A stretch of 64,000 bases of DNA, from assembly GCA_900637705.1 (NCBI GenBank), contig LR134390.1:1488001-1552000 (forward strand), in the 5' to 3' direction. The position numbers were made by a program, and so were the translations under genes. The DNA is from Fusobacterium varium (GTDB taxonomy: Bacteria; Fusobacteriota; Fusobacteriia; Fusobacteriales; Fusobacteriaceae). The notes beneath the pieces were generated by a model. It was not told the DNA's origin and ran no database searches. It saw only the letters and a program-made list of their open reading frames with translations. Positions 30,393 through 64,000 of the stretch are shown piece by piece (position 1 is the stretch's first letter; the number at the start of each line of letters is the position of its first letter).

Positions 30393-33300
30393 TTAAAATT
30401 TATAATTGAATCTTACACCATATTTAATTGATGAATCTTTTTTATGTGACTCATCTGCTGCTTCCACTTCAAATGTTACTCCCATGTGGTTGGCTTTCTC
30501 TACTGTCAGTCCTACTTTTCCTGATAGCTTTCCTTCTTTTTCATCTGGAGTAATCAGACTGTAATATCCTTCTCCTCCATTTTTAAGTCTTGCTTTGTTT
30601 CCATCATAGTTATCTCCAAGTTCATATGCATATTTTACATCTGCTGTTACTTTTACAGATACATCATTTACTACATAGACTCTCTGCTGAGCTTTTACTC
30701 CTGCTGCTGCCTGTGCGCTTAAGTAATCATTATCTTTAATTTGCACTTCAAGTCCACCTTTGCTTCCAGCACTTTCTTTAAAATCATCTACTTTTCCATA
30801 TTCTAAATTTAAGTCAGCATATACATCTAATTGTCTAGATAAATCTGTATAGATAGCTTTTGTTAATCTGTTATCAAGTGCTACAGAGTAAGTATTATAC
30901 TCTCCCTTATTTTCAAATGTTTCTTGAAGATTAAGTTTTCTCTTAGCAATATGTCTGTTGTATCCTAGTTCTATTCTTGATAACCATGATACTTTATGCT
31001 CATCACTTAGATTTTTAACTCTGTGTGCTCCTACTCTCAATGAATATACATCTTCTTTTGAACCACCATCATCAAAGTCAAATTTAGATCCAGCAAATCC
31101 TATTGTATATCCATACTTGCTTCCATACTCTGTTCCCTCTTTTTCTTTCATATATAGAAGTCCCATTACTTTGTAGTCATAGTCATCTATTCCTAAAGTA
31201 GAGTCCTTGTAGTTTCCATCAGTATAAATAACACTGTATTTACTGCTGTCTTTAGTTAGGTTGTATGATGATTCAAGTTCATAGAAAGAATTATTAAATG
31301 CCTGATTAATATCCTGCATTCTTCCTTGAATAGTTGCATAGATATCTCCTCTGAATTCAGCTAATTTTTTTGAAGCTTCCCCTGTAAATTTATTTTTTTC
31401 CATTCCTTCTAAATAATTGTTTAATCCTTTTAAGATTTCAGCATCTCTTCCATTTCCACCACTATTTCTTAAAACATTATCAAGTCCCTTATCCAAAGTA
31501 TCAAATTGTTTCCCAAGAGTTAAATCTGCATATGGTCTTTTAGCTATTACTAAATCTCCAGCATTTGTCACTTTTGCTATAAATAGAGGTGATGTTACAG
31601 GAGTAAATTTTGTTCCTGTTATTGTTTTGATAGCTGTATTTACAAATCCTTTTATTTCATATGAAATACCATTTCCTGTAAGTGTAAAATTAGGTAGTAA
31701 TCTTATCTCTCCACTTACACTACGTGCATTAAACAGAGGTGTTTTAGTTGTTACATCTACATATGCTCCATTAACAATTACATTTCCAACAGTTGAGAGA
31801 GTTCCTCCAATAGCAGTATATTTATCATTAATCAGTATAGTTCCATCTGGCTGTATTACTACTGCTCCTACTCTTGCAGCTGTAACATTACTTGAGTCTT
31901 CCGTTTTTCCTTTTCCTGTTACTATTATATTTCCTGTATTAGTAACATTTCCTATACCTTCAATACCTGTTCCATTCTTTACATATATTGTCCCTTTATT
32001 AATTAGATTTGCTTGAGTACCTACCAGCATTCCTACACCTTCATTAACAGTTATTATTCCTCTGTTTTCTATTGTAGCTCCTGCATATGCTGCCATACCT
32101 ATTGTTCTATTTCCACTTGATACTAAAGTTCCACCTAAATTGATATTACCATTAGTTTCATTTATTGCTGTAGCTCCATCTCTTACCAGAACTCCTACTC
32201 CACCATTATCTATATTTATTATTCCTTTGTTTGTAAAACTAGTTCCTTCACCTTGTCCATATATTCCTACTGAATATTCATGGTTTACTGTTATTGTTCC
32301 AGAACTTGTTGCCATAGTTCCTCCTGACAAATACATTCCTATTGAATTCTCATGTTTTGTTTTGTCATTAGGTTCTCCATTTACATTTGTACTTCCTACA
32401 GTTATAGTTCCTGTATTTGTAACTCTATTTGCTCCTTCTGAATAAACACCTACAGCTGACATTCCTAATGTTATATTTGCTTTATTTTCAATTAATGCTG
32501 ATTCTCCTGCTGTTTGTTTTAAATAGATTCCATATCCACTATTTCCTACTGTCCAGTTTCCTGCTGATGTAGTTATAGTTCCTCTTCCATCTATCTTATA
32601 GATTCCAACTGATGCTCTCTCAGTTTTATTAGCTATTATCATGTTTCCTGTATATGTTATATCTCCATTACCTTCACTTGCAATACCTATACTTGTATCA
32701 GCACCAATTCCCATATTTCCTGTTACTACTGAGTCCATTCCTTTAGCATATACTCCTATTGCATCACCTGATTCTACTGTAATGTTTGACATATTAGCAG
32801 TTATTGTTCCTCCAGTTCCTTCACCATAGATTCCCACTCCCTCTGTTCCAACAGACATTCTCTCTGTTCCAGTTCCTTGGGTAATTATACTTCCAGGTGC
32901 CATTCCTTTTCCAAAAACACCTATACTGTAGTTTCCTGCTGAAAGATTTCCACTTCCTGTATATGAACCACCATTTAAAACAACTCCTATTGATGATATT
33001 GATTTATCTTCTGATATTGGAGAATCCCCAACTAAAAGATTTCCTCTAGTTGTAATTTGGCTCTCTTCTCCATATATACCTATATTTTTATTTCCTTTTA
33101 CTGAAATATCACCTGTTATTACCAAATTAGAGTTATCTTTTGCCATTACTCCTACTTGATTATTTTCAGTAGCACTTCCAATAGAGATTCCTCCTGCTGT
33201 ACTTCCTGCTGAGTTATTCAATACCATTCCAATAGTATAGTTTCCTGTTTGAGTTATTGTTGGTACTGCCCCAAGTGCTGCTACTCCATCATAATAAATT

Positions 33301-36300
33301 CCCATAGAATACTTAACTGATGTTCCACTTTGTACATTTATTGCAGTTGCTCCAAATGTTGGTGCTGCTCCTTTTACATAGGCTCCTATTCCACCATTTT
33401 GAACTGTTATAGCTGATGCTCCTACAGCATTGATAGTTCCACCATCTGCTACTATTCCTATTTGGTTATCAGCTGTAATATTTCCACTGAAATTTAATGT
33501 AGCACCTTTAGAATACATATATATTCCATCTGCTCCTACTGTAATATTAGCTGTATTCCCAACTGTTACTGTCGTTCCAGCTCCCTCAGCATATACTCCT
33601 ATTCCCTTATTTCCAGTTGTAATTGTTGCTGTTCCTGCCATAGTCATATCTGCCCCATTTTGAGCTACTATTCCTATTGCACTTTTTGATGCACTTCCTT
33701 CACCTGTTGTAATTGTTCCATCTATTGTGGAAACTGCTGTTCCTGTTGCAAATACTCCTACACTTTCATTTCCTAAGTTAACAGTTCCTACATTTATATT
33801 CCCTGATGTTCCCTCTAGAACTACTCCTGTATTTCTTGAACCTGTTGAAGTTATATTATTTGCAGTAAGTCCATTTGTTGCTCCTTTAATATATACTCCT
33901 ATTCCATCTGTTCCTGTCATATTCATATTATTATTTTGTACAGAAGTAAGCACACCATTGTGAGCTGAATATATTCCAATTCCATTACTTCCTACATTTA
34001 TATTTCCTGTATTTGCTACATCTGCTACATCTGTATAGATTCCTATTGATGGTGTATTTGTACTTGATTTTCCAGATGCATTGATTGTTCCTGTATTATT
34101 TATTGTTACTGGAAAGCCAGGATTTGTTCCTCCTTTTACTGCTGCCAGTCCTATTCCTCCAGATACAGCTGTTATTGTACCAGAGTTATTTACACTGTGT
34201 GCTGCTGTAAGTCCTGAATCATATAGCCCCATAAGTCCTGTTGCGCCTTCTCCTACGTTTAGAGTTCCTGAAGAGCTTAGGCTTCCATTTGTTGTTGCTG
34301 CTAGTGAACCTGACCCTATCACATTTATATTTGCTCCAAGATTCATTGTTCCCCCATTATTGAATACTCCTATTCCTCCACCTGCTAAGAAGTTGAATTT
34401 AAGGTTTCCTCCAGTTCCTAAATTAGCTATTCCACCTTTTATATATACTCCTGTTCCTCCATTTATATTAAGCACAGTTGTATTAGTTGTAAGAGTAGTT
34501 CCATTGTCTACATAGATACCTATTCCTCCTACTGTATTTATTGTTCCACTATGAGTAAGATTTGTTCCTGGTGTAGTTCCATCTAAATAAATTCCTACTC
34601 CATTTTGAGCATTTACAGTTACATTACTCATTGTATATGCTCCTAATGCACTCTTCAAAAGAATTCCTATTGAAGATTTTAATGGAGTTCCTGTTTTTGT
34701 ACCTGTTGCTATATTTGCTCCATTAAAAGTTACACTATTATCTAGAACATATACTCCTACTGAGTCCTGTCCTGTTGTTATATTTCCTGATATTACTGAA
34801 GTTCCTTTAGCTACAACTCCTACTGCTCCTCCAGAATTTGATGTATCAACTGTAAAATCTATCTTGGAATTTTCTCCAAATACTCCAACTCCTCCTGAAG
34901 CTATGTTTAAAGTTCCTGTTTTTATTTTATTTGCTTCAGTATTTTTAAGATACATTCCTACTTTATTTGAATTAATTGTTCCTCCAGTTCCATCAAAACT
35001 GTTAGTAGAGCCATCTACATATACTCCTGTTCCTGTTGTAGTAGTTATTGTTCCTGCATTTTTACCTGAGTTTGTTCCAGCTCCTCCTATATACATTCCA
35101 AGATTAGCACCTGCTGTGATTGTTCCCCCAGCTGCATTTTCCACTGCTGCAGTTTTTCCAGCTTTAGCTCCAGCAACCATTCCTACAACTGATTTATTTA
35201 ATCCACTTGGTGCTCCATTCATCAGTATAGTTCCTGAGTTTTCTCCTTTACCTTCTTCTGTATATATTCCTATGCTGTCACTATCATTCATTGTAATAGT
35301 TCCTGTTGAAGTTAACTGAGAACCTTCTCCTACATATGAACCAATATTTTCTGATTTTCCTGCTGTCGATGTAATATTAGAATTATTTACTAAAGTTATC
35401 CCATCTGCTGCATATATTCCAATGCTTTCACTACCAGTCAGAGAAATATCTGAGCTATTTGTCACTGTTCCAGAAGCAGTTCCCTTGCTGTAATATATTC
35501 CTATATTTTTAGTTCCTGCTGCTGTATTATTTACAGTTATTGTTCCTCCAGTTGCAGAAGCTCCATCAGCTAAATACATTCCTGTTCCTCTTCCTGTATC
35601 AGTATTAAGAGTCAGTCCTCCTGCTCCTACAGTCACAGCTCCTCCACTTCCATATATTCCTACTGCATTTCCTCTTGCTGTTACACTTCCTGTTATTTCA
35701 GAAGCCCCATCTATAAATATACCTGTAGTCTTATTTCCAGTTACTGTTACATTCACATCTAGATTATTATTTCCTTTAGAATAAAGTCCTACAGCTTCAT
35801 TTACAACATTCAGCTTTCCTGTTGTATTACTTATAAATCTGCTTCCTGTTCCAGCATTTTCAAGATAGATTCCTACTGTTTTATTTCCTGTTGATGAAAT
35901 AACTTCTCCATCTATAGTTATTGTTTTATTTGCTTTTATTCCAATAGTTGCATCTTTTCCATATACAAATATATTTTTATTTTCATTTGCATTTTTTAGT
36001 GTTACATTTTCTACAAAATCCACTAAAGCTTTTTCAGCAAATATCCCTATACTTGATTTTCCACCAAATCTAATATTACTTCTATCATCAAGTTCAGTTT
36101 TAGCTCCTCCCTTGATATATATTCCTGTTGTACCATCAGCATTAAGATTTATAGTTCCCTTGTTTATAACTTGACTATTTATTCCTTCAGCATACATTCC
36201 TATTTGAGAGGCTTCATTTACATTAATAACTCCAGCTGCATTATTAACAATATGAGCTGTTTTAGTGTACATACCTACAGCTCCAGTTTTACCTGCACCT

Positions 36301-39300
36301 AAAGTAATATTTCCCTCATTATATCCAGAATTAGTTTCTGTCCCTTTAACATATATTCCGATTCCAGCAGTTCCAATATTTAAAGCTCCTTTTGAAGTGA
36401 TATTCATATTTTCACTATATACTGCTGTTCCATTATCTAAATCTGATATATCAATATTCACTTTTATTTCTTTAGAAGTGTTTCCTTCTCCTTTGTAGAA
36501 AATTACAGTTTTTCCAAGAGTTCCTATCCCATTTGAAGTAACCCTTACATCAGTTGCAGTAAGGTCTGATGTTCCATCTAACATTACTCCAATTCCATCT
36601 GCTCCAAGATTAAGAGTTCCAAGAGCTTTTATTTCAGAATTATTTTTAGCATATATTGCAATTCCATTATTTCCTACTGAAATAATTCCTAAATTTGATA
36701 TTGTAGTTTTATCTCCATATATACCAATAGCTGCATTTGTAGCTGTTGAACTTCCTACATCAATTATTCCATTAATATCATTACTAACTTTAGAATCTGC
36801 TTTGGTTCCAGCTACATTGTTGTTATATGCATATATACCTATAGTTCCAGTTCCACCTAAACCTATATATTTATTATTAACAATATTTATTTTTCCCTGC
36901 TCAGCAAAAATTCCTCCTGCTCCAAATTCATTTACAATAGGAGTTTCTGCTGGTTGTTCTCTATATGCCATTCCTAAAATACCTATAGCCTGATTTCCTT
37001 TTACTTCTATATCCCCTGCATTTGACACTGTACTTCCATTTACTGCATATACTCCTATTGCTTTATCATTAACAGTATTAGCACCTTTTTCAACTTCTAC
37101 TTTTGCACCTGCTGCAATATCTATTTTACCAAAGTTCATATAAAGACCAATTGCTCCTGCACCTGCATCTGTTCTGTCTGCTATTACTTTAGATCCTGCT
37201 GCAAGATTTATTTGAGCATCTGTTGCACTTCCTGCTGCCTTACTTGAATTCATTTCAAGTCCTACTACCTGTCCCTTAAAATATGTTGATGCATCTGAAC
37301 TGTTGATTTCTGATTTTACTTCTACTCCATTAAGAACATTGAGTTTAAGTCTTTGACCTAAAAATCTTCTGTAATAGAAAAATCCTGGTGAAGTAGTGGA
37401 AGTATCTGTTTTGTCCATGTTAGCATTGATATTTAAAATTCCTCCATCTACAGCTGCTATTTTATACTTATCAAATACTTGAGTTCCATTTGTTCCAGCA
37501 ACTATATTTACTCCACCTAATTTATTTTCTATATCTGTTTTAAGTGTTCCTATATTTAAAGTTCCTATATTCTTAAGATTAACTCCTACTGCATCATTAG
37601 ACATTACTACAATTTTAGCTCCAGTCAAAGTTATCGGATTAGAAGAAGGAGTACTTAAATCCAATTCAAGACCTGTAGCTTTTCCTCTCAGAATTATTTC
37701 TCCATTTGATAAATTAACAGTTCCTCCATTTGAAGTATAAACAGCATATCCATCTCCACTATAATCAACTATACCTCCTGACAAGTCTATATTTGAATTA
37801 CTTCCTGTTGCTACTGCCCCTACTGTTCCATCTTTTACTTTAACATAAGTGTTTTTAACACTGATTTTTCCACCATCACTTGCATAAATTCCTAAACCTG
37901 ATGTACTTCCATCAGCTTGTATTTTTCCTTCTACATATATATTGGCTGGAGTAGTTGGCTCAGAAATATTTCCATTAGCATCTGGCTGAGAAAGTGTCAA
38001 AGAAGTTCTGTCTGTTATAATACTTCCTTGATTTGTAGCAAATAGTCCTGTACTATTTCCTGATAAATTCAAACTCAATTTATCTTTTTCTATATTTATA
38101 ACTGTTCCACTATTCTTAGCATATATAGCAACTGTATCTTCAATTTTTTTAGTATCCTTTCCTGCTATTACATCGCCTTTCATAGTTATTGTTTTTCCAT
38201 TTTGTGCAATTGCTATCTGATTGTTTTTTCCACCTTCTATTAAAATATCTCCATCAAACTTTACATCTCCACCTTGAGCAATTATTCCAATATTTCCTTC
38301 TCCACCAGATATTTTTACACTGCTCTTTTCTGCTGGATTTCCATATGGTTTTAAAATTTCAATTGTTCCATTTTTCCCAAATATTCCTATTCCACCATAA
38401 GAATGCTCTCCTATTTCTATTTGAGCTGCTGTTTTTGTTGTACTTGAGTTATCCATCAGTATTCCAATAGCTTGCTCTACTAGATTAGGGTCATTTGCTC
38501 TTGCAGAACCATCAGGATTAGTAAAAATACTATTTATAGAGTTTCCTTTTTCTATAGCTTGTTTTTTACTTCCAATATTGAACTTCACTATATTTTTTCA
38601 TTTGTTATATTTGTATTTTGTGCAACCAGACCAACACTTTTATCTCCTAATAATTCAATTGGTTTTTTTATATATGCTGTATGTCCAATATGAAAAGGAC
38701 TATTGTCTGACATATACAGAGCTATTGCCTCTGCTCCTCTTATTTCAGCGATTCCCTCATTTACAAATGCAGCTCTGTTATAAGGTAAATTTCTATAAAC
38801 CCATTGCATCAATGAAGCTCCTATTCCATCTACATATATTTTTCCAGTTGGTCCATTTGAATAGATATATGCTTTTGCTTCTTGTGTATCTGGAGAATGC
38901 ATATATACAGCTGATTTATCTCCATTGACAATAATTGTTCCTTCATTATCTAAATAATTAGTTCTAAGACCTCCATTTGTATGTGATGTTGTGAAAAAAT
39001 ATGCTGAGTTTGTTCCATTTATATCTACTTTCCCTTTATTGACAAACAAAAGCTCAGTATTATTATTACCTTTAATTCCACTATATGTCTGATACTCTCT
39101 CAATCTGTCACGTGTTTCTGAAGTTATAAGCCCTTCTGCTACTCTATTGTCTAAATTACCATTTACTATTCCTTCAGTTTCAAGATCAATAAGTTTAGCA
39201 TGATTTGAATTAAAAACTATTTTTGTATTTTCTCCATAATATGAATATGGTACATTTAATAAAGTATGAAAAAAGTTTTTATTTACAGTATATGTTCCAT

Positions 39301-49404: not shown

Positions 49405-49711
49405 AAATCATTCCTCCATAAAATTATTATTTTCTATTATAACATAAAATATAATCATAATAATATCTTGTTCTCTAAATTATTTTTTAATAATTCTCTC
49501 CTATCTCCATTGCCTTTTCCAATAAATATGCATTTTTTAATTATAAATATTTTTCATTATTATATTACAAGAAAATATTTAAATATAATTAATTGGATTT
49601 TTTTATTTTATATTTTTTTATTTTATATTTTTTTATTTTCCATTAAATAATATTAAAATAATTATCTCTAATCAGTCATTTATAAACTTATCGATAGATT
49701 TTAAGAGCATA
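49405..49711. other. Intergenic, AT-rich, short tandem T-rich repeat
   Basis: No gene. Near 49598-49640 a unit of about 16 bases (TATTTTTTTATTTTA-like) is repeated three times. Confidence 0.4.
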
Positions 49712-49740
49712 TTGACATATTAGATATATTTTGCTAGAAT
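49712..49740 (+). promoter_or_regulatory. Strong promoter of candidate small RNA
   Basis: TTGACA, 17-base spacer, TAGAAT; no ORF of useful size follows. Confidence 0.75.
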
Positions 49741-49746
49741 ATATTT

Positions 49747-49845
49747 GAACATCATTCCCTCGATGTTTTTTACAAAATAATCATTCATTTTCAGAAACGG
49801 ACATTTTCTGAAGGTCACCTATGAAAAGCCCACTTGGGCTTTTTC
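49747..49845 (+). ncRNA. Candidate small RNA (~99 nt)
   Basis: Bounded by the promoter at 49712-49740 and the perfect terminator AAAAGCCC ACTT GGGCTTTTT (49824-49844). Inside, hairpins CATC attccct GATG followed by a T run, and TTTCAGAAA / TTTTCTGAA, indicate structure; GGTCACCT lies between. No start codon with a ribosome site is present. No known riboswitch or housekeeping RNA recognised. Confidence 0.6.
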
Positions 49846-49863
49846 GTTTAATGATTTCAAAAC

Positions 49864-49913
49864 AAAAAAGATATTACAGCAGCATATTTTACACTGTCTA
49901 TAATATCTCTTTT
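49864..49913 (-). terminator. Terminator for the minus-strand gene at 50045
   Basis: AAAAAAGATATTA / TATAATATCTCTTTT stem; on the minus strand it ends in a T run. Confidence 0.6.
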
Positions 49914-50044: not shown

Positions 50045-50562
50045 CTACCAACTTTTAAAGGAAATTTTCTCATATAATTCTATACTTTTTTCTTTAAGCA
50101 TATCAGCTAAATCTCTATTATAACTTTCAATCTCTTTTTTTAAAAAACTGCAAATCTCATTTATTTTAGTCAAATGATTTATAAGTTCCTCTTTTATTTC
50201 ATGTTCATTTTTGAATTCAGTTTCTTTTAAAGAAATATGATATTTTCTTCCTTTCTCATTACAGGGAGTTTTATTCCTTCTATTGAGTCAGGTGAAACTT
50301 TTAATAATTCCCCACTTCCAGAAAAAGGTAGTGAAAAAATTATTTTATTTTTCTCTACTATTTCCTTTATTTCTCCATAGGAAAAATTTAAATATTCTAT
50401 TTTATTTTCTTTATAAATTTTTTCTACCATTTTAGAAAATTTTAAAAAATTAGTTTTCCCCTTTTTAGTTTCATTTTCTAAATCTCTTAGAGCATAATCT
50501 CTCATTCTATTCAAATAAGTACTACATATTGTTCCAGTAAAAATAATGAATTTATCTTCCAT
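50045..50562 (-). CDS. Hypothetical protein (172 aa), one frameshift
   Basis: The N-terminal frame (MEDKFIIFTGTICSTYLNRM... to 50227) and a second frame ending at 50045 (SLKETEFKNEHEIKEELIN...) join if one T is added at a TTT run near 50237, giving exactly 173 codons. The protein is soluble, alpha/beta N-terminal and helical C-terminal. The opening FIIFTGTICSTYLNRM resembles a nucleotide-fold strand and turn, but I assign no family. Good ribosome site (GGGGGA). Confidence 0.55.
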
Positions 50563-50993: not shown

Positions 50994-51659
50994 ATGGAAG
51001 CAAAGAAAAATAAGGTAGATGAAAGTTTAATTTTTATGGGTCTTCTTACTTTTATTGGGGGATTTATTAATGCATATGCATTTTTTACAAGAGGGCAAGC
51101 TTTTGTTAGTATGCATACAGGAAATATGGCTAAAATAGGATTATCTTTATATCAGAATGATTTTAATATGCTTATATCAAGTATTGTGCCTATATTAGGT
51201 TGTCTTTTAGGAGCTGTATTTGCTCAGTTGCTAAAATCCATTTTGAAGGAATATGAACTGCCAAAACTGCAGAAAGCTCTTTTAATTACAGAACTTATTA
51301 TTCTATTAGGAATCGGATTTATTTCTACTTCCTTTTCTAATAATATAGTAAATTTTTTACTTTCTGTTATAACAACTTTCCAGTTAAGCAATTTTAGAAA
51401 ATATAATGGCAATGTCCATAATAGTACTATTGCAACAGGGAATTTAAGAAGTCTTGGAGCTCATATAGGTGATGTTTTAATAAAGAAAGATATTGAATCT
51501 TTTAAAATAGCTTCTAAATATTTTATATTGGTATTTTCTTTTCCAGTTGGAATATTCTTTGGTGGATTTCTTAGTACTCTATGTGGCATATATGCAATTT
51601 GGTTTTGCTGTATTATTTTATTATTTTTAACTTCATTAATCAAATACGAAAATAAATAA
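50994..51659 (+). CDS. YoaK family (DUF1275) membrane protein, second copy
   Basis: A 221-residue polytopic protein with the family motifs FVSMHTGNMAKIGLSL after the first helices and VHNSTIATGNLRSLGAHIG in the second half. It is clearly diverged from the copy at 8984-9667, so not a recent duplicate. Monocistronic; GGGGGA ribosome site and its own terminator. Confidence 0.87.
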   Translation: MEAKKNKVDESLIFMGLLTFIGGFINAYAFFTRGQAFVSMHTGNMAKIGLSLYQNDFNMLISSIVPILGCLLGAVFAQLLKSILKEYELPKLQKALLITELIILLGIGFISTSFSNNIVNFLLSVITTFQLSNFRKYNGNVHNSTIATGNLRSLGAHIGDVLIKKDIESFKIASKYFILVFSFPVGIFFGGFLSTLCGIYAIWFCCIILLFLTSLIKYENK

Positions 51660-56327: not shown

Positions 56328-59300
56328 TTAGAATTTGTAATTGAATCTTACACCATATTTGATAGATGAATCTTTTTTATGTGATTCATCTGCTGCTTCC
56401 ACTTCAAATGTTACTCCCATATGGTTGGCTTTCTCCACTGTCAGTCCTACTTTTCCTGATAGTTTTCCTTCTCTCTCTTCTGGAGTGATTAGACTATAAT
56501 ATCCTTCTTCTCCATTTTTAAGTCTTGCTTTGTTTCCATCATAGTTATCTCCGAATTCATATGCATATTTTACATCTGCTGTTACTTTTACAGATATATC
56601 ATTTCCTGCATAAATTCTTTGTGATGCTTTTACTCCTGCTGCTGCCTGTGCGCTTAAGTAATCATTATCTTTAATTTGTACTTCAAGTCCACCTTTGCTT
56701 CCAGCATGCTCTTTAAAGTCATCTACTTTTCCATATTCTAAATCTAAATCAGCATATACATCTAATTGTCTAGATAAATCTGTATAGATAACTTTTGTAA
56801 GTTTGTTGTCAAATGCTACAGAGTAAGTATTATACTCTCCTTTATTTTCAAATGTTTCTTGAAGATTAAGTTTTCTCTTAGCAATATGTCTGTTGTATCC
56901 TAGTTCTATTCTTGATAACCATGATACTTTATGCTCATCACTTAGATTTTTAACTCTGTGAGCTCCTACTCTCAATGAGTATACATCTTCTTTTGATCCA
57001 CCATCATCAAAGTCAAATTTAGATCCAGCGAATCCTATTGTATATCCATACTTGCTTCCATACTCTGTTCCCTCTTTTTCTTTCATATATAGAAGTCCCA
57101 TTACTTTGTAGTCATAGTCGTCTATTCCTAAAGTAGAATCCTTGTAGTTTCCATCAGTATAGATAACACTGTATTTACTGCTGTCTTTAGTCAGGTTGTA
57201 TGATGATTCAAGTTCATAGAAAGAATTATTAAATGCCTGATTAATATCCTGCATTCTTCCTTGAATAGTTGCATAGATATCTCCTCTGAATTCAGCTAAT
57301 TTCAATGATGTTTCTCTTTCAAATTGATCTGCTGGAAGACCTTCTAAGTATTCATTTAATCCTTTCAAAATATCAGCATCTCTTCCACTTCCACCACTAT
57401 TTTTAAGAATATTATCCAATCCTTTATCCATTGCATCAAATTGTTCCCCTATTGTCAAGTCTGCATATGGTCTTTTTGCAATAACAAGGCTTCCTTTATC
57501 TGTAATTTTAGCAATAAATAGAGGTGATGTTACAGGAGTAAGTTTAGTTCCTGTTATTGTTCCTAATGCTGTATTTACAAATCCTTCCATTTCATATGAA
57601 ATACCATTTCCTGTTGAAGCAAAGTTTGGAAGCAGTCTTACTTCTCCACTTACACTATGTGCATTAAATAGAGGTGTTCCTGTTGTTGCATCTACATATG
57701 CTCCATCAACTATTATATCTCCTGCTGTAGAAAGTGTTCCTCCTATAGCTGTATACTGGTCGTTAATCAATATAGTTCCATCTGGTTTTATTGTTACTAC
57801 TCCTACTTCAGCCGTAGCTAAACCACTTGAATCTTCACCTGTTGCTCCTGGTGCTACATTCATTGTTCCAGTGTTAGTAATATGTCCTGTTCCTGTTATT
57901 CCAACTCCATTATTAACATTTAAAGTTCCTGTATTTATTAGATTTGCCTGATTTCCAACAACCATTCCTGCTCCAGAATTTATTGTTATAATACCATTAT
58001 TTTCTATTGTACTTCCAGGACCAGATGCAGACATTCCTACATTGACAGCCCCACATATAGGTGAAGCATTTCCTCCTAATGTAATAACTCCTTCATTTAC
58101 AGCTATTGCTCCATTTCTTACAATAACTCCAACTCCACCATTATCTACATCAATTATTCCATAGTTCTCAAAACGAGTTTTATCTCCAGTAATTATATTA
58201 CTTCCATCAACATACACACCAACAGAGTGATCTTCATGAACTTTTATTGTAGCTCCTGCTGCATTGAAGATTTTTGTTCCACCTGCTCCATAGATTCCAA
58301 CTGAGTTTAAATGCTTTGTTGGATCAGAATGATTTGAAGGTCCTCCCTCTACATAAGTTTCTCCTACAGTTATATTTCCAGAATTATTTACTGTATTAGC
58401 TCCATTAGAGAATATTCCTACAGATGACATACCTAAATTCATATCAGCACTATTATTGATTGTTGCAGAATTAGAAGTCATAGTTGTTGATATTTCTTTC
58501 CCTGCTGCATCTACAGTTACTATAGCCTGTTGTACATAGATTCCATATCCACTGTTTCCTACTGACCAGTTTCCTCCTGATGTAGTTATAGTTCCTGATC
58601 CCAGTTTCTTATAGATTCCTACTGATGCTGTATCATCTTTTCCAGTTCCCTTATCATCTATTGTTATAGCTCCAGTATATGTTATATTTCCAGTTCCTTC
58701 ACTTGCAATACCAACACTTGTATTTGCACCAATTCCCATGTTTCCTGTTACTACTGAATCCATTCCTTTGGCATATACTCCTATTGCATTACCTGTTCCT
58801 ACTGTAATGTTTGACATGTTAGCAGTTATTGTTCCTCCAGTTCCTTCTCCATAGATTCCAACTCCTTCTGTTCCAACAGCCATTGTTTCTGTTCCAGTTC
58901 CTTGAGTAATTACACTTCCAGGTGCCATTTTTTTTCCAAAAACACCTATACTGTAGTTTCCTGCTGAAAGATTTCCACTTCCTGTATATGAACCACCACT
59001 TAAAACAACCCCTATTGATGAAGAGGCTTTATTTATACATAATGAAGAATTTCCAACTGCTACATTACCATTTACAGTAATTATACTATTTTCTCCATAT
59101 ATACCAATATTATTATCTCCTCCACTTATATTTACTGTTCCTGCTACTGTAAGGTTAGAGTTTCCTTTTGCCATTACTCCTACTTGATTAGATGTTCCAG
59201 CACCTCCAATAGAAATTCCTCCTGCTGTAGTTCCTGTTGAACTATTAAGTGCCATTCCCAGAGTATAGCTTCCTGATTGTGTTATTACAGGTGCAGTTCC

Positions 59301-62300
59301 TATAGAAGATACTCCGTCATAGTAAACTCCCATAGAATATATAGAAGATGTTCCTGTTTGTACATCTATTGTTGTTGTTCCAAATGCTGGTGCTGCTCCT
59401 TTTACATAGGCTCCTACTCCTCCATTTTGAACTGTTATTGTTGAAGCTCCCATAACATTAATAGTTCCACCTTCTGCTACTATTCCTGTTTGATTGTTTG
59501 CTGTAATATTTCCACTGAAATTTAATGTAGCACCTTTAGAATACATATATATTCCAGTTGCTCCTACTGAAATATTTCCTGCATTTGAAACTGTTGCTGT
59601 TGTTGATGCTCCTTCAGCATATACTCCTATTCCCTTATTTCCAGTTGTAATTGTTGCTGTTCCTGCCATAGTCATATCTGCTCCATTTTGAGCTACTATT
59701 CCTATTGCACTTTTTGATGCACTTCCTTCACCTGTTGAAATTGTCCCATCTATTGTGGAAACTGCTGTTCCTGTTGCAAATACTCCTACACTTTCATTTC
59801 CTAAGTTAACAGTTCCTACATTTATATTTCCTGCTGTTCCCTCTAGAACTACTCCTGTATTTCTTGAACTTGTTGAGTTTATATTATTTGCAGTAAGTCC
59901 ATTTGTTGCTCCTTTAATATATACTCCTATTCCATCTGTTCCTGTCATATTCATATTATTATTTTGTACAGAAGTAAGCACACCATTGTGAGCTGAATAT
60001 ATTCCAATTCCATTACTTCCTACATTTATATTTCCTGTATTTGCTACATCTGCTACATCTGTATAGATTCCTATTGATGGTGTATTTGTACTTGATTTTC
60101 CAGATGCATTGATTGTTCCTGTATTATTTATTGTTACTGGAAAGCCAGGATTTGTTCCTCCTTTTACTGCTGCCAGTCCTATTCCTCCAGATACAGCTGT
60201 TATTGTACCAGAGTTATTTACACTGTGTGCTGCTGCCAGTCCTGAATCATATAGCCCCATAAGTCCTGTTGCGCCTTCTCCTATGTTTAGAGTTCCTGAA
60301 GAACTTAGGCTTCCATTTGTTGTTGCTGCTAGTGAACCTGACCCTGTTACATTTATATTTGCTCCAAGATTCATTGTTCCACCATTATTGAATACTCCTA
60401 TTCCTCCACCTGCTAGGAAATTAAATGTCAAACTTCCTATTGTTCCAAGATTAGCAGTTCCTCCATCTACATATACCCCTGTTCCTCCATTTATGTTAAG
60501 TACAGTTGTATTAGTTGTAAGAGTAGTTCCATTGTCTACATAGATACCTATTCCTCCTACTGTATTTATTGTTCCACTATGAGTAAGATTTGTTCCTGGT
60601 GTAGTTCCATCTAAATAAATTCCTACTCCATCTTGAGCATTTACAGTTACATTACTCATTGTATATGTCCCTAATGCACTCTTCAAAAGAATTCCTATTG
60701 AAGATTTTAATGGAAGTCCTGATTTTGTACCTGTTGTTATATTTGCCCCATTAAAAGTTACACTATTATCAAGAACATATACTCCTACCGAATCCTGTCC
60801 TGTTGTTGTAATATTTCCTGATATTACAGAATTAGTTTTTGCTGCAACTCCTACTGCTTCTACTCCTGAAACATTTACTACAAAGTCAATATTTGCATTT
60901 TCTCCAAATACTCCTACTCCTCCTGAAGCTATATTGAAAGTTCCTGCTGTTATTTTATTCACTCCAGTATTTTTCAGATACATTCCTACTGCATTTGAAT
61001 TAATTGTTCCTCCAGTTCCATCAAAGCTGTTAGTAGAACCATCTACATATACTCCTGTTCCTGTTGTAGTAGTTATTGTTCCTGCATTTTTTCCTGAACT
61101 TGTTCCAGTTCCTCCTACATACATTCCAAGATTAGCCCCTGCTGTGATTGTTCCCCCAGCTGCATTTTCTGCAACAGCAGTTTTTCCTGTCTGAGTTTCA
61201 GCAGCCATTCCTACAACTGATTTACTTAAAGAACTAGCTGTTCCATTCATTGCAATAGCACCAGAATTAATTCCTCTTCCTTCTTCTACATATATTCCTA
61301 TACTGTCATCATCATTCATTGTAATAGTTCCTGTTGAAGTTAATTGAGAACCTCCTCCTACATATGAACCAATATTTTCAGATTTTCCTGCTACTGATGT
61401 AATATTAGAATTATTTACTAAAGTTATTCCATCTGCTGCATATATTCCTATACTTTCATTGTTGGCAATACTAATTACTGAACCATTTGTTACAGTTCCT
61501 GATGCAGTTCCTTTACTGTAATAAACTCCTATATTTTTAGTTCCAGCAACTGTATTATTTACAGTTATTGTTCCTCCTGTTGCAGAAGCTCCATCTGTAA
61601 GATACATTCCTGTTCCTCTTCCAGAATTAGTATTAAGAACAAGTCCTCCTGTATCTATAGTTACAGCTCCTCCACTTCCATATACTCCTACTGCTCCTGC
61701 AGTTGCTGTTCCTGTAGCAGCTACTGTTCCTGATATAATTGATGTTCCATCAATAAATATACCAGTTGTTTTATCTCCTGCTGCTGTTACATCAACATTT
61801 AAAGTATTATTTCCCTTAGAATATATACCTACTGCTTCATTTGTAACATTAAGCTTTCCTGTTCCATTAAATGTACTTCCAGTACTAACATTTTCAAGAT
61901 AAATCCCAACAGTTTTATTTCCAGGTGTTGTTGGTGTTCCCACTCCATCTATTGTTACAGTTTTACCTGAATCTATTCCTACTGTTGCATCTTTCCCATA
62001 TACAAAGATATTTTTATTTTCATTTGTACTTGTAAGAGTCTGGTTATCTTTAAAGTTTACAGATGAATTTTCAGCGAAAACTCCTACACTGGATTTTCCA
62101 TCAAACACTATTTTATTTCCAGTATTAAGTTCAGTTACAGCACCTGCTTTAACATATATTCCTGTAGTTCCATCTACCTTAAGGTTGATTGTACCTTGAT
62201 TTATTGCTTTAACCCCTGATCCTTCTGCATACATTCCTATTTGTGAAGCATCATTTACATTGATTATTCCTGTTGTAGTATCATTAAGGATATTAGCTGT

Positions 62301-64000
62301 TTTAGTATACATTCCAACAGCTCCTGTCTTCCCTGTTCCTAAAGTTATAGTTCCTGTATTAGTTCCTGTATTAGTACTACTTCCTTTAATATATATTCCT
62401 ACTCCAGAAGTTCCTATACTTAATGCTCCTGATGATGAAACACTCATATCTTCTGCATATATAGCAGTTCCTTTATCTAAAGCTAAAGCATTTACAGCTA
62501 CACCAATATTTTTAGTTTCTCCACCAGTTCCTTTATAGTAGATAGCAGTTTTTCCAAGTGTTCCAGTATTATTTGAAGTTACTGTTACAGTAGTTGCACT
62601 AAGGTCTGATGTTCCATCAAGCATTACTCCAACTCCATCTGCACCAAGATCAAGAATACCAAGACTTGCAACTTTAGTTTTATTTTTAGCATATATTGCT
62701 ACTCCACCATCTCCTACTGATACTTTTCCCTGATTAGAAATAGTCGCTTTATCTCCATAAATACCTATTGCCGCATTTGAAGCATCTGAGCTTCCAACTT
62801 TTATTTCTCCAGTTGCTGTATTTGTTACAGTAACATCTGCTTCTGTTCCTAAAGTATTGTTGTTATATGCATAAATACCAATACTTCCTTTTCCATCAAG
62901 AGTTATTTTACTGCTGTTAGTAATATCAGCTTTTCCTTGAGCAGTAAAAATACCTCCAGTTCCAAATTCATTAACTAGTGGTGTTCCTATAGGTTGTTCT
63001 CTATATGCCATTCCTAGAATACCTATAGATTGATCTCCTCCTACTTCAATACTTCCATTGTTTAATACTGTACTTCCATTTACGGCATAAACTCCTACTG
63101 CTTTATTACTTCCACCATATATCTTTCCTACTTCTACTTTAGCTCCACCAGCTATATCTACTTTACCAAAGTTCATGTAAAGTCCAATAGCTCCATTTCC
63201 AGCATCTACTCTATCTACTGATACTTCAGAGTTAGCCAGCAGATTAATTTGTGCATCTGTTGCACTTGTTGCTGCCTTACTTGAACTCATTTCTAGTCCA
63301 ACTATCTGATTATTAAAATATGCTGTAGCATAAGTAGTATCTGTTAAACTTAATACTTTAACTCCCATATCCACTGTCAACTTAAGTCTTTGTCCCAAAA
63401 ATCTTCTAGAATAGAAATATCCAGTAGTAGTTTCATTTTGATTATATTTAGACATATCATCATCAATAGTTAAATCTCCACCATCAACAGTAGCTATCTT
63501 ATATTTGTCAAATGTATTTATTCCATCAAATCCATTTGCTATTGATACTCCTGATCCTAAATTTGTTTCCACTGTGCTTTTTAAATTACTAGTAAGAAGA
63601 CCAGTAGCATTTTTTAAATTTGCTACTGTAGCATCATTTGACATCATTGTGATTGTTGTATTATTCATTGTTACTTTTGGAGATAACAGGTCAAGTTCTA
63701 CTCCTGTTGCTTTTCCTGAAAGTTCTAAATTGGCATTAGTCAAATTGATTGTTCCATTTCCATCTGAATATGCAGCATATCCTTCTCCAGAATATTTCAA
63801 TTCTGCCCCTGTAAGATTAATACTAGTCCCAGCTCCAAAGGCTGCTACTCCTGCTGCTCCATTTTTTACATCTATCTTGGCAGCTCCTAAATTTACTGCT
63901 GCTCCACCTTCTGCATATACAGCTAATCCTCTTGTTGCTGGATTTGATGTATCATCAACTGAAATAGTCAAAGCATTTCCAGAAGTTGATGTAATTGTTC
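56328..64000 (-). CDS. Second giant type Va autotransporter adhesin (5' end beyond window)
   Basis: At least 2,557 residues, open to the window edge. Architecture equals autotransporter 1: GIGIY/GVGIY-rich beta-helix passenger, then the barrel. The barrel (from about FNNSFYELESSYNLTKD to FNYKF, ~300 residues) and long passenger stretches (for example 59530-60640 versus 33500-34615) are nearly identical to the first at DNA level, while other passenger parts differ. No frame breaks in 7.7 kb. The signal peptide is outside the window. Confidence 0.9.
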   Translation of the reverse strand, partial: TITSTSGNALTISVDDTSNPATRGLAVYAEGGAAVNLGAAKIDVKNGAAGVAAFGAGTSINLTGAELKYSGEGYAAYSDGNGTINLTNANLELSGKATGVELDLLSPKVTMNNTTITMMSNDATVANLKNATGLLTSNLKSTVETNLGSGVSIANGFDGINTFDKYKIATVDGGDLTIDDDMSKYNQNETTTGYFYSRRFLGQRLKLTVDMGVKVLSLTDTTYATAYFNNQIVGLEMSSSKAATSATDAQINLLANSEVSVDRVDAGNGAIGLYMNFGKVDIAGGAKVEVGKIYGGSNKAVGVYAVNGSTVLNNGSIEVGGDQSIGILGMAYREQPIGTPLVNEFGTGGIFTAQGKADITNSSKITLDGKGSIGIYAYNNNTLGTEADVTVTNTATGEIKVGSSDASNAAIGIYGDKATISNQGKVSVGDGGVAIYAKNKTKVASLGILDLGADGVGVMLDGTSDLSATTVTVTSNNTGTLGKTAIYYKGTGGETKNIGVAVNALALDKGTAIYAEDMSVSSSGALSIGTSGVGIYIKGSSTNTGTNTGTITLGTGKTGAVGMYTKTANILNDTTTGIINVNDASQIGMYAEGSGVKAINQGTINLKVDGTTGIYVKAGAVTELNTGNKIVFDGKSSVGVFAENSSVNFKDNQTLTSTNENKNIFVYGKDATVGIDSGKTVTIDGVGTPTTPGNKTVGIYLENVSTGSTFNGTGKLNVTNEAVGIYSKGNNTLNVDVTAAGDKTTGIFIDGTSIISGTVAATGTATAGAVGVYGSGGAVTIDTGGLVLNTNSGRGTGMYLTDGASATGGTITVNNTVAGTKNIGVYYSKGTASGTVTNGSVISIANNESIGIYAADGITLVNNSNITSVAGKSENIGSYVGGGSQLTSTGTITMNDDDSIGIYVEEGRGINSGAIAMNGTASSLSKSVVGMAAETQTGKTAVAENAAGGTITAGANLGMYVGGTGTSSGKNAGTITTTTGTGVYVDGSTNSFDGTGGTINSNAVGMYLKNTGVNKITAGTFNIASGGVGVFGENANIDFVVNVSGVEAVGVAAKTNSVISGNITTTGQDSVGVYVLDNSVTFNGANITTGTKSGLPLKSSIGILLKSALGTYTMSNVTVNAQDGVGIYLDGTTPGTNLTHSGTINTVGGIGIYVDNGTTLTTNTTVLNINGGTGVYVDGGTANLGTIGSLTFNFLAGGGIGVFNNGGTMNLGANINVTGSGSLAATTNGSLSSSGTLNIGEGATGLMGLYDSGLAAAHSVNNSGTITAVSGGIGLAAVKGGTNPGFPVTINNTGTINASGKSSTNTPSIGIYTDVADVANTGNINVGSNGIGIYSAHNGVLTSVQNNNMNMTGTDGIGVYIKGATNGLTANNINSTSSRNTGVVLEGTAGNINVGTVNLGNESVGVFATGTAVSTIDGTISTGEGSASKSAIGIVAQNGADMTMAGTATITTGNKGIGVYAEGASTTATVSNAGNISVGATGIYMYSKGATLNFSGNITANNQTGIVAEGGTINVMGASTITVQNGGVGAYVKGAAPAFGTTTIDVQTGTSSIYSMGVYYDGVSSIGTAPVITQSGSYTLGMALNSSTGTTAGGISIGGAGTSNQVGVMAKGNSNLTVAGTVNISGGDNNIGIYGENSIITVNGNVAVGNSSLCINKASSSIGVVLSGGSYTGSGNLSAGNYSIGVFGKKMAPGSVITQGTGTETMAVGTEGVGIYGEGTGGTITANMSNITVGTGNAIGVYAKGMDSVVTGNMGIGANTSVGIASEGTGNITYTGAITIDDKGTGKDDTASVGIYKKLGSGTITTSGGNWSVGNSGYGIYVQQAIVTVDAAGKEISTTMTSNSATINNSADMNLGMSSVGIFSNGANTVNNSGNITVGETYVEGGPSNHSDPTKHLNSVGIYGAGGTKIFNAAGATIKVHEDHSVGVYVDGSNIITGDKTRFENYGIIDVDNGGVGVIVRNGAIAVNEGVITLGGNASPICGAVNVGMSASGPGSTIENNGIITINSGAGMVVGNQANLINTGTLNVNNGVGITGTGHITNTGTMNVAPGATGEDSSGLATAEVGVVTIKPDGTILINDQYTAIGGTLSTAGDIIVDGAYVDATTGTPLFNAHSVSGEVRLLPNFASTGNGISYEMEGFVNTALGTITGTKLTPVTSPLFIAKITDKGSLVIAKRPYADLTIGEQFDAMDKGLDNILKNSGGSGRDADILKGLNEYLEGLPADQFERETSLKLAEFRGDIYATIQGRMQDINQAFNNSFYELESSYNLTKDSSKYSVIYTDGNYKDSTLGIDDYDYKVMGLLYMKEKEGTEYGSKYGYTIGFAGSKFDFDDGGSKEDVYSLRVGAHRVKNLSDEHKVSWLSRIELGYNRHIAKRKLNLQETFENKGEYNTYSVAFDNKLTKVIYTDLSRQLDVYADLDLEYGKVDDFKEHAGSKGGLEVQIKDNDYLSAQAAAGVKASQRIYAGNDISVKVTADVKYAYEFGDNYDGNKARLKNGEEGYYSLITPEEREGKLSGKVGLTVEKANHMGVTFEVEAADESHKKDSSIKYGVRFNYKF

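What the first reader, a model, noticed from the sequence alone, without database searches (positions are those of the whole stretch)
49712..49845. Orphan small RNA with near-perfect promoter and terminator
TTGACA-17-TAGAAT is followed by about 99 structured bases and a perfect GC-rich hairpin terminator, with no ORF. The contrast with the surrounding AT desert is marked. Its exposed GGTCACCT could pair with mRNA ribosome sites (AGGTGACC).
Basis: seen in the sequence. Interest (0 to 1): 0.55.

Follow-up and report, generated by a model that had tools for sequence, protein, structure and literature searches.

The report
Multicopy, prophage-linked Fusobacterium small RNA
A short stretch of gut-bacterium DNA looks like the gene for a small regulatory RNA that exists in several copies, some of them inside resident viruses, and probably silences other genes by pairing with their translation start sites.

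Summary
TTGACA-17-TAGAAT (49712-49740) precedes a strongly folding 99-base stretch (49747-49845; z about -4.4) that ends in a GCCC/GGGC hairpin plus T5. It sits in a 15-20% GC gap and contains no plausible gene.

It is not an orphan. Covariance models find a second copy in the same genome, inside a prophage, and five in G028 (chromosome length identical to F. varium Fv113-g1), two of them in prophages; three more in IMG/VR prophage contigs; one divergent copy in G027. Promoter, upstream block, three hairpins and terminator are conserved; identity drops to about 0.3 after the terminator in most comparisons. Base pairs covary. No Rfam family matches.

Best reading: a free-standing, prophage-disseminated sRNA family whose C-rich 5' loop (UUCCCUC) pairs with G-rich ribosome-binding sites, working like Listeria LhrC or FoxI/FoxJ but not shown to be homologous to either. 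One candidate target (DUF6173 gene) is suggestive, not significant. Transcription is untested.

The parts
49666..49676 (+). CTCTAATCAGT block upstream of the promoter, kept in sRNA copies; possible regulator or UP-type site (function inferred)
   Evidence: Aligned copies; the block plus TTGACA occurs twice in G000, both times at an sRNA copy, and seven times in G028, four of them sRNA copies; reversed-pattern control 1 and 4.
49712..49740 (+). Promoter TTGACA-17-TAGAAT with TG at 49732-49733
   Evidence: conserved with 17-base spacing in the aligned copies.
49747..49845 (+). Predicted sRNA, about 99 nt (5' end inferred from the -10 box, 3' end from the terminator)
   Evidence: relatives.
49747..49768 (+). 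Hairpin 1, loop AUUCCCUC (49754-49761) unpaired: proposed seed
   Evidence: 3 pairs changed on both sides; the pair at alignment columns 5/18 occurs as UA, AU and GC.
49787..49815 (+). Hairpin 2
49816..49822 (+).
   Evidence: CACYTA in 7 of 9 sequences.
49823..49844 (+). Intrinsic terminator GAAAAGCCC-ACTT-GGGCTTTTT
   Evidence: GCCC/GGGC invariant in 9 of 9. Not listed by the pattern scan.

Best explanation
The region encodes a free-standing small RNA of about 99 nt, one of a multicopy family confined, as far as searched, to the F. varium/F. ulcerans-like branch and carried partly by prophages. A strong sigma-70-type promoter transcribes it and the terminator ends it (inferred from sequence). 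Hairpin 1 displays a C-rich loop and the linker a second C-containing segment (predicted structure, supported by covariation). The loop most likely pairs with G-rich Shine-Dalgarno regions of target mRNAs and blocks translation (inferred by analogy; no target shown). The window copy is the chromosomal ortholog of one of two tandem copies in Fv113-g1.
For: Nine aligned copies share promoter, three hairpins and terminator. Model R2 finds the G027 copy, which was not in its training set, at E 2.5e-7. Identity of the window copy to other copies is 0.65-0.86 in the promoter and 0.51-0.79 in the transcript, but 0.23-0.48 in the 50 bases after the terminator. Pairs: 91.5% of cells paired, 6 pairs changed on both sides, 0 of 500 shuffles reach this; RNAalifold on a MAFFT alignment made without the model gives the same three hairpins. 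The loop is unpaired in all 9. The loop's complement before ATG is enriched 3.2-fold and 1.9-fold over the reversed control. No shared downstream gene: the next same-strand gene is A, B, a DUF1007 gene or none near.
Against: No transcript data. The alignment was fitted to the model; the independent one shows only 3 compensatory pairs. Nine sequences from few genomes are closely related. Two copies in Fv113-g1 lie only about 40 nt upstream of small genes, as a leader would. GAGGGAA is itself Shine-Dalgarno-like, so its enrichment shows pairing capacity, not targeting. The best duplex is not significant (32 of 500 shuffled loops as good).
Confidence: 0.58

Rival explanations
1. A cis-acting leader or attenuator: the hairpins and terminator regulate read-through into the small gene that follows.
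For: In Fv113-g1 two copies end about 37 and 43 nt before the start codons of genes A and B, which have good Shine-Dalgarno sites. The structure ends in a terminator.
Against: Window copy: the next + strand gene starts at 50994. G027: the neighbour is on the other strand. In prophages the sRNA follows gene A, and the next gene differs between copies. No alternative anti-terminator fold was apparent, but none was searched for systematically.
Confidence: 0.17
2. A prophage-borne regulatory RNA that acts on phage or superinfecting-phage functions rather than on host mRNAs; the window copy is a remnant or a domesticated immunity factor.
For: 6 of the copies found lie in prophage-like DNA: G000 second copy, two in G028, three IMG/VR contigs. 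They sit next to replication genes.
Against: The DNA collections of phages gave no match. Four chromosomal copies in three genomes have no phage gene recognised beside them. Over 158 start regions, including the prophage stretches, no phage gene stands out.
Confidence: 0.15
3. A promoter-terminator spacer of gene cassettes without a trans function: an insulator that travels with accessory genes.
For: The copies lie between accessory genes. A weaker second unit in the prophages shares the same terminator.
Against: Covarying hairpins and a conserved C-rich loop are not needed for an insulator; the window copy persists without genes A and B.
Confidence: 0.1

Closest known systems
LhrC1-5 of Listeria monocytogenes (PMC4132741, passages read)
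   Same: Multicopy sRNA; exposed C-rich (UCCC) motifs in a loop and a single-stranded stretch; proposed block of G-rich ribosome-binding sites; low-GC host.
   Different: No sequence relationship found (no Rfam match). LhrC has UCCC in three sites including the terminator loop; here the terminator loop is ACUU and the linker CACCUA. Envelope-stress control by LisRK is not known here.
FoxI and FoxJ of Fusobacterium nucleatum (PMC11005410, abstract and passages read)
   Same: Fusobacterial sRNAs that use a cytosine stretch as seed (FoxJ: in a hairpin loop).
   Different: FoxJ is about 156 nt, sigma-E dependent and lies upstream of ylmH; here about 99 nt, sigma-70-type promoter, unrelated neighbours.
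Prophage-encoded trans-acting sRNAs such as DicF, STnc6030 and SprY (review PMC12197685, passages read)
   Same: sRNA genes carried by prophages.
   Different: The review's text does not mention Fusobacteria. No sequence relationship tested beyond Rfam.

Membership tests
Any described RNA family (Rfam 15) | Score at or above a family's gathering threshold | tested here: not met
   Whole window: only a tRNA. 49600-49900 at E up to 5: six sub-threshold chance-level matches, best score 19.4 bits against a cut-off of 63.
LhrC | UCCC motif in an exposed loop | tested here: met
   Loop AUUCCCUC unpaired; UCCC in 6 of 9 copies, other C-rich loops in 3.
[quoted passage not shown]
   Linker CACCUA, terminator loop ACUU.
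LhrC | Binding to target Shine-Dalgarno sites; LisRK control | not testable with these tools
   Needs RNA experiments.
FoxJ | Location upstream of ylmH, between der and 4.5S RNA | tested here: not met
   Neighbours are a 106-aa gene, a MORN_2 protein, a broken 111-aa ORF and a DUF1275 gene.
FoxJ/FoxI | Sigma-E dependent promoter | tested here: inconclusive
   The promoter is sigma-70-like; the sigma-E motif is shown only in a figure, which is not held.
Cis leader / riboswitch | Constant downstream gene on the same strand | tested here: not met
   Downstream genes differ or are absent among copies.
Type I toxin-antitoxin | RNA complementary to the adjacent small gene's start region | tested here: not met
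   Gene A and B start regions pair with the loop at only -3.3 to -7.7 kcal/mol, near or above the mean of -7 for 158 start regions.

The most novel reading that the evidence does not exclude
A phage-to-host sRNA system: fusobacterial prophages carry gene A plus this sRNA as a cassette, hosts have kept copies as their own regulators, and the adjacent DUF6173 gene in Fv113-g1 has acquired a start site matched to the sRNA loop (14 contiguous pairs), unlike its orthologs in six other genomes.
Probability: 0.15. Interest if true: 0.6.

Novelty: new member of a known kind. Interest (0 to 1): 0.4.

Why it matters
Fusobacteria are far from the model bacteria and, according to PMC11005410 (passages), F. 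nucleatum lacks Hfq and ProQ; the sRNAs seen in the papers read here (FoxI, FoxJ) are from F. nucleatum. A multicopy, prophage-shared sRNA family in the F. varium group would be a compact system for learning how C-rich seeds find targets there, and whether prophages deliver regulatory RNA to gut fusobacteria. RNA-seq reads for Fv113-g1 are already public, so the first test needs no new experiment.

Tried and rejected
Phage and plasmid collections: no DNA match for the window copy (151 bases) or a prophage copy (191 bases) in phages; in plasmids only six Arcobacter/Aliarcobacter matches of about 57 bases to the AT-rich upstream and promoter part. Gene A protein: no match in phages or plasmids.

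Of the 79 rows shown in its listing, none names a Fusobacterium; I take them as chance and used none. The viral pattern gave 7 stretches; none reached E 0.05 with model R1, so they were dropped.

Weak model matches (G013, G011, G024, G071 and others) share mainly the terminator or lie in AT-rich coding-like DNA; I count them as chance. R1 and R2 were trained on the copies that they find again; only the matches outside training (second G000 copy, fifth G028 copy and IMG/VR copies for R1; G027 for R2) are independent. R2's RNAalifold structure also contains a spurious helix inside the promoter.

Target search: 158 start regions in 7 stretches. The best duplex for the window loop is the DUF6173 gene of Fv113-g1 (-16.7; next -13.1 kcal/mol), and its orthologs lack it (-12.1 or weaker at their start sites). 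But 32 of 500 shuffled loops do as well, 50 of 500 if CCC is kept: rejected as proof. The gene is absent from the window's genome, so it cannot be the window copy's target there. The repeated GAGGGAACAGAGTATG lies inside autotransporter coding sequence and was dropped as a ribosome site.

Literature: F. varium + sRNA gave 2 unrelated listings; F. ulcerans + small RNA 1 unrelated; Fusobacterium + sRNA + prophage + noncoding RNA 9 listings, none on such an RNA by title.

Full report
What is there. The finding's coordinates are right. A near-consensus promoter, TTGACA (49712-49717), 17 bases, TAGAAT (49735-49740), with an extended -10 TG, is followed by a 99-base stretch (49747-49845) that ends in GAAAAGCCC-ACTT-GGGCTTTTT. 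It folds into three hairpins at -26.1 kcal/mol, z -4.46, none of 200 shuffles as good. GC is 36%, against 15% and 20% in the flanks. No ORF longer than 5 codons starts inside it except one of 46 codons that crosses the terminator. The pattern scan for terminators missed the hairpin, and the promoter by itself is not far beyond chance in 64 kb (2 exact matches, 0.5 expected). What decides is conservation.

Relatives. BLAST of 111 bases over 98 Fusobacteriota genomes found the window copy, four copies in G028, and two 28-base chance-like matches. A covariance model of five sequences (R1) over 61 family genomes added a second copy in the window's own genome and a fifth in G028. A model that includes the promoter (R2, eight sequences) gave, over 12 genus genomes, two in G000, five in G028 and one in G027 that had not been used for training (E 2.5e-7); everything else was at E 0.18 or worse. 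Over 98 phylum genomes the same eight returned, plus G013 (E 0.005) and G071 (E 0.08), which I judge to be chance. G028's chromosome has 3,965,155 bases, exactly that of F. varium Fv113-g1 in PMC5720691 (passages read); G000 (3.30 Mb) is therefore probably F. varium too, an inference. Three IMG/VR contigs carry copies next to gene A; three further patterns return the same three contigs. The phage record collection has none.

Anatomy of the family. All copies share the promoter, an upstream block (CTNTAAYCAGT and an AT-rich segment), the three hairpins and the terminator. The block plus TTGACA occurs twice in G000, both at sRNA copies, and seven times in G028, four at sRNA copies; the reversed-pattern control gives 1 and 4. 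Just after the terminator, identity of the window copy to six other copies falls to 0.23-0.48, from 0.51-0.79 in the transcript. On nine sequences, 91.5% of cells pair, six pairs change on both sides and none of 500 shuffles reaches this. That alignment was fitted to the model; RNAalifold on a MAFFT alignment made without it gives the same three hairpins with three compensatory pairs. The loop of hairpin 1 is unpaired in all nine predictions and always C-rich: UUCCCUC in six, UUCCAUC, UUCUCCU and ACCCCCA in the others. The linker before the terminator is unpaired as well, CACYTA in seven of nine.

Genomic setting. Two G028 copies and the second G000 copy lie in prophages, near terminase and replication genes, each just downstream of gene A, a 77-aa protein without Pfam or PHROG match. 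Gene A occurs in 2 of 98 genomes, four copies in all; each lies beside an sRNA copy (compare). At the window's own locus the order of neighbours is shared with Fv113-g1: the 106-aa gene, the MORN_2 gene and the DUF1275 gene. Fv113-g1 has there sRNA, gene A, sRNA, gene B, and further on a DUF6173 gene. The window has only the sRNA. G026 and G027 keep the 106-aa gene in another setting without an sRNA there. The fifth G028 copy precedes DUF1007 and NicO-like genes; the G027 copy lies between a flavoprotein-like ORF and an ORF on the opposite strand.

How it probably works. Shown by computation: conserved promoter-to-terminator unit, covarying hairpins, accessible C-rich loop. Inferred: transcription, free existence, pairing, repression. 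The complement of the loop, GAGGGAA followed by ATG within 3-12 bases, is enriched over the reversed pattern in both genomes (174 against 55; 161 against 85); the complement of the linker, TAGGTGA, is not (60 against 68; 68 against 74). This fits a loop that resembles an anti-Shine-Dalgarno, but it says only that many start sites could pair. Among 158 start regions, the best partner of the window loop is the DUF6173 gene of Fv113-g1, the third gene after the paired sRNAs: sRNA CAUUCCCUCGAUGU against AUAUUGGGGGAAUG, 14 pairs over the Shine-Dalgarno site. Its orthologs in six other genomes lack the match. Shuffled loops reach the same energy in 32 of 500 trials, so this is a lead. Genes A and B are not complementary, which speaks against a toxin-antitoxin pair.

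Rivals. A leader or attenuator is suggested by two Fv113-g1 copies about 40 nt upstream of genes A and B, but the window copy has no gene for more than 1 kb downstream on its strand and the G027 copy faces a gene on the other strand. A phage-directed regulator and a function-free cassette spacer remain possible.

Comparison. [quoted passage not shown] Here only the first of these sites has UCCC, and no Rfam family matches, so it is not filed as a member. FoxJ and FoxI of F. nucleatum also use cytosine stretches (PMC11005410, abstract and passages), but size, locus and promoter type differ for FoxJ, and FoxI could not be compared. Prophage-encoded sRNAs are a known kind (PMC12197685, passages). 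The library searches listed no paper on such an RNA in F. varium or F. ulcerans, judged from titles and abstract starts.

Verdict. A real and previously undescribed (by these searches) sRNA family, a new member of a known kind; of moderate interest because it is multicopy, shared with prophages, and testable at once on public reads.

Noticed in passing
L010 7783-7861 (-), L177 7601-7667 (-), L023 5468-5534 (-): Three prophage copies of the sRNA are followed on the opposite strand by a tRNA or tRNA-like gene; the L010 one is called tRNA-Tyr with the unusual anticodon ATA, the others are scored by Rfam but not by ARAGORN.
   Followed up: partly
window 50045-50562 (-): Two ORFs that in Fv113-g1 form one gene of 172 aa (L009 5472-5990): the window's copy is broken by a frame change or an assembly error.
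   Followed up: no
window 30393-38588 (-) and 56328-63971 (-): Two giant repetitive proteins (2731 and at least 2547 aa) with nearly identical C-terminal ends, autotransporter-like by eye; Pfam gave no hit for the first at 0.001.
   Followed up: no
L177 7700-7801 (+), also L023-L025 near 5560: A weaker second unit in the prophages: promoter-like stretch, a different hairpin and the same AAGCCCACACGGGCTTTTTT terminator (24.7-25.3 bits); perhaps a second small RNA.
   Followed up: no
L009 7042-7251 (-), L011 7492-7692 (-): Gene B, a 66-69 aa Cys-rich protein matching phrog_4298 of unknown function, next to sRNA copies.
   Followed up: no
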